A stretch of DNA of 64,000 bases from an uncultured Prevotellaceae bacterium (GTDB taxonomy: Bacteria; Bacteroidota; Bacteroidia; Bacteroidales; Bacteroidaceae): assembly GCA_902776665.1 (NCBI GenBank), contig CACYQZ010000002.1, forward strand, positions 74,329 through 138,328. Reading direction: 5' to 3'. The position numbers were made by a program, and so were the translations under genes. Numbering within the stretch: the first letter of the stretch is position 1; each line of letters opens with the position of its first letter. The notes under the pieces are model-generated. The model saw only the letters and a list, made by a program, of their open reading frames with translations, did no database searches and was not told the origin of the DNA. Of the stretch, positions 34,498 to 37,908 are shown piece after piece.

Positions 34498-36279
34498 TTA
34501 TTGGATGACGACTTTCTTTCCGTTGTGGATATAGATGCCGGGCTTGGTCGGACGCTTCGAGAGTTTCTGGCCCGAAATGGTGTACCACGACGATTTCGTT
34601 GACTGGTTGCCGGCAGCGAGGGTGCCGATGGAGTCGGGGTTGTCGGTCATGGTCAGGGTGAAGGGCTTGGAAATGTCTTTCAGGCCTCACCACTGGTCAT
34701 CGACGGCCTGAATGGTTCCCTCGATGGCATCGCCGACCTTGAATCCCTGCTGCACGAGCAGATCGCCATTCATTCTGAATTCGAGGTGGAAGGGATTGCA
34801 GTTCTTGATGGTGGACTCGAAGTTGTCGTTGTCGAAGGGAATCCATTCGCCATCCACCAGCACCTCTGTTCCGGGGAAGAGGAAGACAACGCCCTTGTAC
34901 CATCCTTTCTCAAGGCTCGAAACCTGACCCGAAGCAATTTCGGCGGGCATCTGAATCGACGGCCTTTTTCCTTCCGTTTCGTTGATAGCCATACCGTATT
35001 TTACAAAGGCTCTGGCATAATTGTAGAGTGGAAGAGATACTGTCTCTGGCTGGTGAAGATAGGATCCATCACTCTGAGCTATACTAATGGTATCATTAGT
35101 ATCTCAGTCTCCATTTAGGTCAAATCTAACTTTGTCTCTATCTGCTGTAGCGTATACCATCTTTAGTAGTTCGCTCGCACCATCTATATCTGCGAAGTTC
35201 TTAGCAAACGCTGATAGATTTGATGCATTATGTTGGGTTGCATCAGAATTAGCATAGTCTCAGCTTGCAGATAGAGCCCATCCAGAATATAGATCAAGAC
35301 ATGGAGCGGTACGTCCAGCGGCCATGGACATTTCATTAAATCCTACAGGAAATAAGGAACTTTCACCAGTTTTGTGTGTTTTATCGACATCTCCATTTTT
35401 ATTTGTGGCTACAGTGACTATTATATGATTATCAGGATCGGTGTTTTTATCTGAATTAGCCCCAGATGCAGTACAAATGTAACTTCAATTTTCATCTTCC
35501 ATTTCATACTCTTTATTATATATTTTATTTCTAAGTGTTCAACTTACTGGTCAAATATTTCCTCAGCTTGCAAAAATAATAAAGTTTTCTGAGGGAGATA
35601 CATTAACATATTTTAACATATCTTGTATCTCTTTCTTTTTTTTAGTACTAGATATCACAGATTCTCAAAAAATATTTATACTGTTTGGATTGTCTTCACA
35701 AAACTTCTTTAAAGATTCATATGCAGTAAATCGATCTGTTATAACATACTTATCTAAATGTGAGCATGTTAATTCTCTTCGACTTCGTGGCATACCTGCA
35801 TGTTTTGATGATTCTATTATACTTCATCATATCACTTCATAGTTGTCATATCAGAGTGGAGCCTCTCGTATCGTACCTACATTTATCCTACTCATCAGCT
35901 GCTGATACTGCTCAGGAGAGTAGTCTCATGCTCCATACTTGTACATCATATCACTAATCCTAACATTCTCAGCTATCCCTAGATGCTCTATAGTCTCGTA
36001 CTTATCCCCAACTCTATGTTTTAACAAAATAGGCAAAATTTCCTCAGGCTTTAGGTTTGTAATCTCAACCGGTGAATACTGCTTGGTGTCAGTGTCGGCA
36101 GGCAGTGCGCACAAGCCCGTGAACATGGCAGAAGATGAAAGAATGGCTGTGCAAAAATATTTGGCTGAAAGAGTTCCTACACTCTTTCAACCACTAAAAA
36201 TAGCGGAAGTTTTCAGTCCTTCTCTGGTGTGGAGAAGCAATTGGCGGAACTGGTTGCCCAGTTTCAGTTTTCAAATCAT
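34498..36279 (-). CDS. Secreted protein read through in-frame TGA codons (TGA = Gly), subtilase-like features
   Basis: From an ATG at 36277-36279 (or 36124-36126) to TAA at 34498-34500 the frame has no TAA or TAG but many TGA codons: plus-strand positions 36271, 36187, 35926, 35851, 35827, 35824, 35665, 35563, 35551, 35539, 35485, 35260, 35104 and 34687. Reading TGA as Gly gives sensible protein: FASGGNIGPVSGT, ENGSYICTASG and DLNGDGDTNDT (a calcium-loop pattern needing Gly). A hydrophobic stretch (KYFCTAILSSSAMFTGLCAL) may be a signal peptide. FASGGN and MSMAAGRTAP vaguely recall subtilisin motifs, but a clear catalytic triad is not seen. The C-terminus (WYTISGQKLSKRPTKPGIYI) is a Bacteroidales sorting tail. 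DNA between about 34985 and 36070 is AT-rich with ata/aga/cta codons unlike the host; the 3' part is host-like. A standard-code annotation would see only fragments. Confidence 0.7.
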
Positions 36280-36675
36280 AGGCTTTTCTTTTGTCTTTTT
36301 CGAGCCTTGTCCTTTTCGTAGTGCTTGCTTTCGAGGGTTAGGAATCGGTCCTATCGCGGAACGGCGTCTTCTTTACCATGTGCCTATCTATGGATGGCAG
36401 CCTTGCTAACTTGCCTATATATCCCTATACAGCATAATATAGCATACTTTTCATTCCCCATCCTTGCACCCGTCGCTCCCTGGCCTTCCTCTTCCACCGT
36501 CGCGGGCTGTGAACGCAGATAAACGCTACCCCCGCCGTGGCCTCTTCCGCACGCTTGCGAGCAGGACTGCTCGGTTTGTCTTTTTTTTGGAAAAAGCGCA
36601 AAAACGCAATTTTCCGCCACAAAGTTACGAATTGTCTTTGATTCCGCCAAATTTTTTCGCAGTTTTTTCAAAAAA
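36280..36675. other. Stretch without recognisable gene upstream of the recoded frame
   Basis: No convincing CDS on either strand. On the minus strand stops interrupt the recoded frame above about 36360. An AT-rich patch (36410-36455) with TATAGG and TATATT-like strings could hold a promoter for the minus-strand gene. The adjoining 36460-36560 is GC-rich with short self-complementary pieces such as GCGGG...CCCGC. The end of the foreign tract probably lies here. Confidence 0.5.
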
Positions 36676-36737: not shown

Positions 36738-36983
36738 ATGTGCAGGTATAGTATTGCAATTGACGATGCCGTGATGGAAATGGTGAGGCCCTCCATCGCA
36801 GCCGGAATGGACGAGGATACGTGGGTGCAGCTTCAGGTGGAAATGTTGTTTTCACAGATGGCGGCATCTCGCAGAAGTGCGTCTTTTGACGATGAATACA
36901 TGAAGAATCTGATTCATTTGTCTGCTCCCGCGTGGAAAGGCGTCCGGGATGCCGACAAGTGGGTTCGTGAATTGAGGGGTTAG
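36738..36983 (+). CDS. Putative antitoxin partner of a PIN-domain toxin
   Basis: An 81-residue protein (RYSIAIDDAVMEMVRPSIAA...). Its helical N-terminal part followed by SFDDEYMKNLIHLSAPAWKG and a C-terminal WVRELRG resembles small antitoxins that wrap around VapC-type toxins; the family is not identified with certainty. It ends 2 bases before the PIN-domain gene, the usual antitoxin-first order, and has its own Bacteroidetes promoter. The ATG at 36738 is preferred to an in-frame TTG. Confidence 0.65.
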   Translation: MCRYSIAIDDAVMEMVRPSIAAGMDEDTWVQLQVEMLFSQMAASRRSASFDDEYMKNLIHLSAPAWKGVRDADKWVRELRG

Positions 36984-36985
36984 TC

Positions 36986-37435
36986 ATGGCGAAGGCAGTT
37001 CTTCTGGATAGTGGTTTTTTGATTCGGCTGATGAATCCCGACGAGCCGCTTCATAGCGTGGCTTTGGACTATTTCAAGCAATACATCACTAGTGGTGTTG
37101 CCTGCAAGGTTTCTACCATTGCTTTGGCAGAATATGGCGTGAAGGGCGATTTGCGTTTTTTGCCTACGCGTTATTTGCAATATGTGCCATTCCTTTATAG
37201 TCATGCCGAGGTGGCAGCTAAATTTATGCGTGAGGTTGTTGAGGCCAAGCAAAAGCGTGGCGCAGTGATTCAGCCTCGCGTCGTTATTCCCAACGATACG
37301 AAAATGTTCGCACAGGCGAGTGCCGACCCCGATGTTTTCGCTTTTGTATCGGCAGATTCAGAGGCTAAAAAAGTTTATGACCTGTTGGAAAACGCAAATT
37401 TTGAATTTGTGAATATTCGAGAGAACGACAAATAA
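36986..37435 (+). CDS. PIN-domain protein, VapC-like toxin
   Basis: A 149-residue PIN-domain protein, the ribonuclease fold of VapC toxins, which often cleave initiator tRNA or rRNA. The first acidic residue is in VLLDSGFLIRLM, a second conserved acidic position in STIALAEYGV, and DPDVFAFVSADSEAKKVYDLL carries the C-terminal Asp set. It follows the small antitoxin gene directly. Its neighbourhood with two odd tRNAs is noteworthy because VapC enzymes commonly act on tRNA. Confidence 0.75.
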   Translation: MAKAVLLDSGFLIRLMNPDEPLHSVALDYFKQYITSGVACKVSTIALAEYGVKGDLRFLPTRYLQYVPFLYSHAEVAAKFMREVVEAKQKRGAVIQPRVVIPNDTKMFAQASADPDVFAFVSADSEAKKVYDLLENANFEFVNIRENDK

Positions 37436-37719: not shown

Positions 37720-37810
37720 GCGGGTGTAGTGTAACGGCAGCACACAAGATTTCAGATCTTGACGGAGCATTTCCATTGCTCAGGCGCGGGTTCGACTCCC
37801 GTCACCCGCT
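37720..37810 (+). tRNA. Atypical tRNA, anticodon TCA (reads UGA), Gly-type acceptor, long variable arm
   Basis: A 91-nt cloverleaf: acceptor GCGGGTG/CACCCGC (7 bp) with discriminator T; D arm GTG/CAC around TAACGGCAG; anticodon stem CAAGA/TCTTG with loop TTTCAGA, anticodon TCA; a 24-nt variable region with stem GAGCA/TGCTC around TTTCCAT; T stem GCGGG/CCCGT with TTCGACT. G1-C72, C2-G71, G3-C70 and U73 are the known glycine identity set, but glycine tRNAs normally have short variable loops. The 7+5 arms and 3-bp D stem are not those of tRNA-Sec. G37 after an A36 anticodon is unusual. It could serve the TGA-rich frame 1.5 kb away. Confidence 0.75.
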
Positions 37811-37817
37811 CGACGAT

Positions 37818-37908
37818 ACGGGCTTAGTGTAACGGCAGCACACAGGTTTTCGGGGCCTGACGTTCGGTTTCCAACCCGACTGAGGCGGTTCGATTCCGCC
37901 AGCCCGTG
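37818..37908 (+). tRNA. Atypical tRNA, anticodon TCG, long variable arm, tandem with the TCA tRNA
   Basis: Also exactly 91 nt with the same plan: acceptor ACGGGCT/AGCCCGT, discriminator G; identical D arm (TAGTGTAACGGCAGCACA); anticodon stem CAGGT/GCCTG with loop TTTCGGG, anticodon TCG (reads CGA); a 24-nt variable arm with a roughly 5-bp stem and the shared TTTCCAA loop; T stem GGCGG/CCGCC. A long variable arm is not expected on tRNA-Arg. A1-U72 with G73 recalls tryptophan tRNAs, and G73 plus a long arm recalls serine, so the charged amino acid is uncertain. It begins 7 bases after the first tRNA and ends 4 bases before a start codon. Confidence 0.75.

What the first reader, a model, noticed from the sequence alone, without database searches (positions are those of the whole stretch)
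34498..36279. A gene with 12-14 in-frame TGA codons that becomes a coherent protein only if UGA means glycine
I translated the minus strand codon by codon. From 36126 down to 34498 there are 543 codons with no TAA or TAG, but 12 TGA; an upstream in-frame ATG at 36279 adds two more. The frame never shifts. Several TGA positions demand Gly rather than Trp: the calcium-loop pattern DLNGD-x-DTNDT, the FAS-x-GN stretch, and the consecutive pair in YEVI-xx-SII. TGG is used separately for Trp in the same gene. UGA-to-Gly is the code known for Absconditabacteria and Gracilibacteria, not for Bacteroidales. Standard annotation would miss the gene entirely.
Basis: partly seen in the sequence, partly recalled or inferred. 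Interest (0 to 1): 0.95.

Follow-up and report, generated by a model that had tools for sequence, protein, structure and literature searches.

The report
Second genetic code inside ordinary bacterium
A bacterium that otherwise uses the normal genetic code carries a gene in which, as in its relatives, the stop word UGA falls mainly where other family members have glycine, beside two oddly shaped transfer RNA genes, a predicted RNA-binding protein and a folded RNA leader, which together would likely let the cell read this gene by a second code otherwise known from a distant bacterial group.

Summary
In detail: window 36279-34498 (-) has 593 codons with 14 UGA and no internal UAA/UAG. In a codon alignment of 32 family members UGA faces mainly glycine; CGA in the recoded copies behaves like tryptophan, not arginine. 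The host keeps RF2, ends 31 of 119 long ORFs on UGA and uses CGA as arginine, so both codons have two meanings in one cell. A folded, covarying leader RNA without Rfam match precedes the gene; 16 of 16 leader-bearing loci have AUG 87-109 nt on, with UGA at codon 3 or 4. The leader model also found an unrelated UGA-containing gene, with SR1 relatives, beside the same cassette in another genome of the order. Best reading: a patchily spread module that would let Bacteroidales translate Absconditabacteria-code genes, probably message by message. Decoding, charging and leader function are untested; eight paper searches showed no such system.

The parts
34498..36279 (-). Recoded gene, 593 codons, 14 UGA (read as Gly), 4 CGA (probably Trp), ends on TAA; predicted secreted subtilisin-fold protein
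36271..36279 (-). AUG-AUU-UGA start: UGA at codon 3, the pattern shared by leader-bearing loci
   Evidence: 16 of 16 leader-bearing loci have AUG-(N3)1-2-UGA 87-109 nt after the leader
35029..36093 (-). Low-GC middle (codons 63-417, GC 0.36) holding 11 of 14 UGA and 4 of 4 CGA; flanking parts have GC 0.46 and 0.53
34960..36051 (-). Subtilisin-fold domain (model residues 77-440)
36380..36534 (-). Core of the conserved folded leader RNA in front of the recoded gene (sequence similarity reaches further 5')
37720..37810 (+). tRNA, anticodon UCA, Gly-type acceptor (G1:C72, C2:G71, G3:C70, U73), hairpin variable arm with UCC in a 7-nt loop
37818..37908 (+). tRNA, anticodon UCG, Trp-type acceptor (A1:U72, G73), hairpin variable arm with UUCCAA
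37913..38905 (+). 'CL1': 330-aa RNase-III-like protein with dsRNA-binding-like domain and a long helix; catalytic acidic motif replaced; starts directly after the tRNAs

Best explanation
A 593-codon gene with 14 in-frame UGA codons sits 1.4 kb from a tandem pair of tRNA genes with anticodons UCA and UCG and Gly-like and Trp-like acceptor ends, and this pair is predicted to let a standard-code Bacteroidales cell read UGA as glycine and CGA as tryptophan in such genes only, likely with the help of the folded leader RNA in front of the gene and the RNase-III-like protein encoded directly behind the tRNAs. Shown from sequence: the open frame, the amino-acid meaning of UGA and (less strongly) of CGA, the tRNAs and their conservation, the linkage of the tRNAs with the protein gene, the covarying leader, the AUG-N-UGA start, the retained RF2 and the normal use of UGA and CGA elsewhere in the same genome. 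Inferred: that host GlyRS and TrpRS charge the two tRNAs; that the tRNAs outcompete RF2 and the Arg tRNA only on leader-bearing mRNAs; that the protein binds leader and/or tRNA (its RNase III active-site residues are replaced, so it would bind, not cut); that UGA at codon 3 is a gate which stops translation at once when the cassette is silent. Inferred origin: code and gene content match Absconditabacteria (SR1), with which such genes were probably exchanged more than once. The host's order is itself inferred from named relatives.
For: UGA=Gly. CGA: in 44 CGA cells of the 22 recoded non-SR1 copies (window included) the other sequences have W 0.154 and R 0.040, against R 0.357 at CGT and 0.428 at AGA in the same copies; the 3 SR1-like copies agree (W 0.164, R 0.008, n=9), while standard-coded copies have R 0.129, W 0 (n=8). 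tRNAs; 13 UCA tRNAs (12 distinct) keep 26 pairs at 100% with 7 pairs changed on both sides. Acceptor ends match tRNA-Gly and tRNA-Trp of another genome of the order, G044, and the identity criteria of PMC8629427 (passages). Protein gene CL1: directly downstream on the same strand in 15 of 15 loci with the long-arm UCA tRNA among 39 sources, otherwise only as a fragment in the L033 remnant; present in 2 of 60 genomes, the host itself and G032. Leader: 16 of 64 sources hit, none of the SR1-like, standard-coded or control ones; 39 pairs, 16 changed on both sides, 0 of 500 shuffles as high on four measures, 6 of 500 on the fifth. Independent test: the model built on 13 leaders hit L146 (77.6 bits), between CL1 and an unrelated ORF with 3 UGA whose relatives include a protein named candidate division SR1 bacterium. 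Start: AUG-(N3)1-2-UGA in 16 of 16; 0.004 expected per 160 nt. Two meanings in one cell: RF2 present, UGA ends 31 of 119 ORFs, CGA as Arg once in pnp and five times in an ORF that ends on UGA. Purifying selection.
Against: No expression, charging or protein data. Of the 21 recoded non-SR1 loci, 10 show no long-arm tRNA in the stretch held; several end at contig edges, and one of those genomes, UBA3289, has the cassette on another contig. L049 has a CGA in a strongly Trp column but only the UCA tRNA in view; two CGA cells lie in columns with Arg (L054 0.7, L048 0.29). The likelihood over all CGA columns did not resolve CGA (best Ile -11.0, Trp -20.8, Arg -21.4); it mixed in standard-coded copies and variable columns. 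The one CCG tRNA (L046) has A at position 20 by my count, an Arg element in the criteria of PMC8629427, so its Trp identity is doubtful. G390 has tRNAs and a divergent CL1 but no leader in 12 kb and no relative of the gene; L057 has tRNA and CL1 beside only a remnant of the gene. About half of the residues facing UGA are not Gly (Ser, Ala, Asp, Asn, Glu follow). The roles of protein and leader rest on linkage. The confidence below is for the code with the tRNA pair as decoder; message specificity alone is put at 0.45 (the section on the most novel reading).
Confidence: 0.78

Rival explanations
1. The tRNA pair is a plain general suppressor set (same code and tRNAs as above, but not message-specific): whenever it is expressed, UGA and CGA are partly misread everywhere, and the recoded gene is just the beneficiary. 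Leader and CL1 only control transcription, stability or processing.
For: Fits the tRNAs and the UGA and CGA columns and needs no new mechanism; phages use suppressor tRNAs (PMC10746230, passages).
Against: The host keeps 31 of 119 UGA stops and CGA as an Arg codon, so general misreading should be costly; UGA stops are no rarer than in three congeners without the cassette (12 of 79, 16 of 78, 5 of 67). CL1 and the leader are conserved along with the tRNAs.
Confidence: 0.3
2. Binning or assembly artefact: an Absconditabacteria gene joined to Bacteroidales contigs.
For: SR1-like contigs carry the same family (L038, L051, L064) and the middle of the gene is AT-rich.
Against: Standard-code genes flank the window gene on both sides; no other recoded ORF was found in the window or in the remaining 101 kb of its contig; the arrangement recurs in many MAGs; the long-arm tRNAs are absent from the two SR1-like genomes searched, and CL1 and leader from the SR1-like loci; the C-terminal tail recurs in ordinary host genes.
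Confidence: 0.03
3. Decaying pseudogene whose stops happen to be UGA.
For: Standard annotation would break it.
Against: No internal TAA/TAG against 26 expected, purifying selection and shared UGA sites, linked tRNAs.
Confidence: 0.02
4. UGA encodes selenocysteine; ARAGORN labels the tRNA SeC.
For: Anticodon UCA, long variable arm.
Against: Gly columns, 14 sites in one gene, U73 and a 7+5 acceptor arm; no selB over cut-off in 7 of 7 genomes.
Confidence: 0.01

Closest known systems
Genetic code 25 with CGA/CGG=Trp (Absconditabacteria, SR1)
   Same: UGA=Gly and CGA=Trp (PMC8629427, passages); homologous genes in genomes of about 1.1 Mb whose fetched stretches are recoded throughout
   Different: Here the code is used by single genes in a genome that keeps RF2 and the standard meanings; the tRNAs are long-arm, whereas the SR1-like UCA tRNA is an ordinary 74-mer
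Selenocysteine insertion (SelB, SECIS, tRNASec; recalled)
   Same: Works-like: UGA given a second meaning in chosen mRNAs, UCA tRNA with extra arm, cis RNA element, candidate RNA-binding partner
   Different: Standard amino acids, many sites per gene, two codons at once, 5' leader, no SelB over cut-off
Code-switching phages with suppressor tRNAs; theta ribozymes beside phage tRNAs (PMC10879173, abstract and passages; PMC10746230, passages)
   Same: Suppressor tRNA carried near recoded genes in a standard-code host
   Different: Chromosomal, no viral match; UGA=Gly plus a sense codon; the leader precedes the gene, not the tRNA
RNase III and RNase-III-fold mitoribosomal chains (6zm5_c, 3j7y_c; the name mL44 is recalled)
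   Same: Fold match of CL1
   Different: CL1 lacks the acidic catalytic residues and has a long C-terminal helix

Membership tests
Code 25 genome | UGA=Gly throughout the genome | tested here: not met
   Only this recoded gene found in 165 kb of the contig; UGA ends 31 of 119 ORFs there
Code 25 genome | RF2 lost | tested here: not met
   prfB over cut-off in 5 of 5 cassette-bearing genomes searched; not in G060 or G061
Code 25 genome | UGA=Gly within the gene | tested here: met
Selenocysteine system | SelB elongation factor | tested here: not met
   0 of 7 genomes over the family cut-off
Selenocysteine system | tRNASec with G73 and extended acceptor arm | tested here: not met
   U73, 7+5 pairs; G73 and the 13-bp acceptor domain of tRNASec from PMC7609411 passages
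Phage code switch | Viral genes or viral contig around it | tested here: not met
   No match in viral contigs or phage records
tRNA-Gly | G1:C72, C2:G71, G3:C70, U73 | tested here: met
   13 of 13 UCA tRNAs
tRNA-Gly | Anticodon NCC | tested here: not met
   UCA; UCC lies in the variable-arm loop instead
tRNA-Trp | G73 with A/G1:U72, no A20 | tested here: met
   9 of 9 UCG tRNAs have G73 and A/G1:U72 and C or U at position 20 by my count; the one CCG tRNA has A20
tRNA-Trp | Anticodon CCA | tested here: not met
   UCG or CCG; CCA lies in the variable-arm loop
RNase III | Fold | tested here: met
   Foldseek E 7e-6 to 7e-4 for 35 chains, model mean pLDDT 75; Pfam Ribonucleas_3_3 below cut-off
RNase III | Catalytic acidic motif | tested here: not met
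   Consensus GNSRYVFAGMFVFKG in 46 sequences at the place of NERLEFLGD (motif recalled)
Subtilase (S8) | Fold | tested here: met
Subtilase (S8) | Asp-His-Ser triad | tested here: inconclusive
   H160 (90% or more) and S345 (invariant) conserved; Asp and geometry not checked

The most novel reading that the evidence does not exclude
A bacterium runs two genetic codes at once, sorted by mRNA. A 5' leader RNA and a dead-RNase-III protein, together with two tRNAs that carry the Gly and Trp anticodon loops displaced into their variable arms, form an adaptor that opens a private code (UGA=Gly, CGA=Trp) on chosen messages, gated by UGA at codon 3, so that genes from Absconditabacteria can be used without rewriting them.
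Probability: 0.45. Interest if true: 0.99.

Novelty: categorically new. Interest (0 to 1): 0.96.

Why it matters
No system is known to me in which a standard-code cell keeps a transferable kit for reading another phylum's code, giving a stop codon and a sense codon second meanings gene by gene. If true it shows that a changed code is not a wall against gene transfer, offers a natural route by which codes could change, and supplies parts (leader, tRNAs, RNA-binding protein) for message-specific code expansion. It also shows how such genes get misread: databases print W at the UGA sites.

Tried and rejected
Selenocysteine, phage code switching, pseudogene decay and binning artefact were tested and rejected or left as minor rivals. 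Pfam and NCBIfam gave no family above cut-off for the recoded protein; weak names far below cut-off (PL28; an effector kinase for L036) were ignored. No sequence match to solved structures for the recoded family; for CL1 only two weak ones. Rfam gave nothing near a gathering score for the leader (best STnc560, 13.8 bits against 55). Plasmids gave no match to CL1 or leader. The likelihood for CGA did not resolve, so I used a count on recoded copies only. Rows dropped: L061 and L067 from the codon alignment; L050, L055, L057, L060, L063 and L065 also from the tree, as short. Scripts call ORFs mechanically, so codon and stop counts contain some false ORFs. One search was meant to read the RF2 gene in L140, but its longest-ORF rule picked a neighbouring ORF (acyl-CoA-synthetase-like by motifs recalled). 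A kissing pairing between the leader loop GGGA and UCC in the tRNA arms (three base pairs) was thought of, not tested. Paper one search (mL44) returned nothing useful.

Full report
OBSERVATION. The minus-strand frame 36279-34498 is open for 593 codons except for 14 TGA; it has no TAG and one terminal TAA. With its base composition about 26 TAA/TAG would be expected. The rest of the window looks ordinary: no other recoded ORF was found in it (at least 200 codons, 4 TGA) or in the remaining 101 kb of its contig (at least 150 codons, 3 TGA). The host's order, Bacteroidales, is inferred from named relatives; many of the loci bear ruminant-gut titles.

WHAT UGA MEANS. The gene has 56 relatives at E up to 0.01 in the protein database; many print W at its UGA sites, and a 98%-identical entry shows W there, as expected if the same DNA was read with UGA=Trp. 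DNA-level evidence came from 33 loci in genome contigs. 24 of the 33 hold six or more in-frame TGA, 9 hold 0 to 3. Three of the 24 (L038, L051, L064) lie on contigs whose fetched stretches are recoded throughout, in two 1.1-Mb genomes without prfB over cut-off; in one of them the UCA tRNA was seen, an ordinary 74-mer (L114). I call them SR1-like; their records say only 'uncultured bacterium', so the label is inferred. With TGA, CGA and CGG masked, Gly makes up 0.53 of the residues facing TGA, and a likelihood over 109 columns gives Gly +50, next Ser -17.

WHAT CGA MEANS. In the 22 recoded non-SR1 copies (21 loci plus the window) CGA faces Trp 0.154 and Arg 0.040 in 44 cells; the 3 SR1-like copies are alike (n=9); standard-coded copies have Arg 0.129 and no Trp (n=8). 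In the strongest columns the others are mostly TGG-coded Trp (0.83 and 0.64). Two cells lie in columns with Arg (0.7 and 0.29). The first likelihood attempt did not resolve CGA. Absconditabacteria are reported to use UGA=Gly and CGA/CGG=Trp (PMC8629427, passages), so the gene appears to be written in their code.

THE tRNA PAIR. ARAGORN finds two tRNAs at 37720 and 37818, both also tRNA by Rfam. The first has anticodon UCA and G1:C72, C2:G71, G3:C70, U73, as tRNA-Gly; the second has UCG and A1:U72, G73, as the tRNA-Trp of G044, another genome of the order. Both carry a hairpin variable arm. 13 UCA tRNAs keep all 26 pairs with 7 pairs changed on both sides, two of them in that arm. The loop holds UCCA in 13 of 13 UCA and 10 of 10 UCG/CCG tRNAs, in 5 of 5 further ones not used for those alignments, and in the G032 remnant. 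In the UCA type UCC sits where an anticodon would sit in a 7-nt loop; the idea that this is a displaced Gly (or Trp) anticodon is mine and untested. The UCG partner is present in 11 of 15 loci with the UCA tRNA; L041, L048, L049 and L057 show only UCA.

THE COUPLED PROTEIN. Directly after the tRNAs lies a 330-aa gene (CL1). It is downstream on the same strand in 15 of 15 loci with the long-arm UCA tRNA among 39 sources; elsewhere only a fragment joined to a tRNA remnant occurs, in L033. Among 60 genomes, own included, only G000 and G032 have it; 255 homologues exist at E up to 0.001, 120 listed. Its model (mean pLDDT 75) has an RNase-III-like part, a dsRNA-binding-like part and a long helix; PDB matches are RNase III, Dicer-type and mitoribosomal chains. 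The acidic catalytic residues are replaced (motif recalled). I infer an RNA-binding, non-cutting protein.

THE LEADER. Upstream of the recoded genes lies a conserved RNA: by BLAST in 15 loci including the window; 13 aligned leaders give 39 pairs, 16 changed on both sides, with 0 of 500 shuffles as high on four of five measures and 6 of 500 on the fifth. The model hits 16 of 64 sources: the 13, two cut by contig ends (L037; L035 at only 17 bits, E 0.11, though clear by BLAST), and L146, which was not used to build it. It hits none of the SR1-like loci, the standard-coded loci or the control stretches. The 7 of 21 recoded non-SR1 loci without it (L043, L050, L054, L055, L058, L060, L063) have the gene's 5' part cut by, or lying beyond, the contig edge. 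In L046, L048 and L056 the leader precedes a neighbouring paralogue. In 16 of 16 leader-bearing loci AUG-(N3)1-2-UGA follows at 87-109 nt and opens the long frame, UGA at codon 3 in 14 and codon 4 in two; where several in-frame AUGs exist I took this one. SR1-like copies have their first UGA later (codon 18 in L051, 38 in L038).

INDEPENDENT TEST. The tRNA pattern occurs in 3 of 393 genomes of the order: the host, G102 and G390. The last two have no relative of the window gene. In G102 the leader model lies between CL1 and an unrelated 245-codon ORF that starts AUG-AUA-CUU-UGA and has 3 UGA. Its 34 relatives include entries named candidate division SR1 bacterium and Patescibacteria group bacterium. 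Against 32 of the 34, one UGA site has no counterpart, one faces mainly W (5) and G (4), one Q (7), W (5) and K (4); its one CGA faces R 22, W 5, which fits CGA=Trp only if the relatives' R is also CGA. In G390 no leader was found in 12 kb.

TWO MEANINGS IN ONE CELL. The host has RF2, ends 31 of 119 long ORFs on UGA (congeners without cassette 12 of 79, 16 of 78, 5 of 67), and uses CGA as Arg, once in pnp and five times in an ORF that itself ends on UGA. A generally misreading tRNA pair would be costly, which is why I favour message-specific decoding, with leader and CL1 as the selecting parts. This step is inferred.

ORIGIN AND FUNCTION. In the protein tree (27 rows) the 4 SR1-like rows need 4 changes, at least 3 forced by well-supported branches, with L038 next to a recoded Prevotella copy, L051/L064 next to L052/L053, and L173 next to standard-coded copies, so the gene probably crossed the phylum border repeatedly; the direction is open. 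The family is patchy on both sides (3 of 79 genomes around and including G060). The protein has a subtilisin fold and a tail shared with other host proteins. It is probably secreted; its target is unknown. The cassette was not found in viral, phage or plasmid collections. Of nine paper searches eight bore on this and listed no description of such a system; only listings and, for five papers, passages were seen.

Noticed in passing
window 36738-37435 (+): Two small closely spaced ORFs (81 and 149 codons) between leader and tRNAs, laid out like a toxin-antitoxin pair; no Pfam match.
   Followed up: partly
L033 4394-4882 (G032, same genus): Remnant cassette: UCA tRNA cut within the T-arm and joined to the last 138 residues of CL1, as if by a deletion.
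   Followed up: partly
L046 1820-1911; L146 416-507: Further long-arm tRNAs: one with CCG anticodon (Trp-type acceptor but A20), one degenerate tRNA-like stretch between the UCG and UCA tRNAs.
   Followed up: partly
window 37720-37908 and relatives: UCCA in the loop of the variable arm of all 29 long-arm tRNAs read (remnant included), resembling the anticodon loops of tRNA-Gly(UCC) and tRNA-Trp(CCA).
   Followed up: partly
L036 9613-9787, L042 9585-9754: Extra hairpin-like insert at the same place of the leader RNA.
   Followed up: no
L036, L043, L046, L048, L056: Second recoded paralogue beside the first; the leader precedes the downstream one in L046 and the upstream one in L048 and L056.
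   Followed up: partly
L045 and L058: Both from MAG UBA3289: recoded gene with leader on one contig, recoded gene plus tRNAs and CL1 on another, so one cassette may serve distant genes.
   Followed up: no
L147 (G390): Divergent cassette: tRNAs and a 34%-identical CL1, no leader or recoded gene seen in 12 kb.
   Followed up: partly
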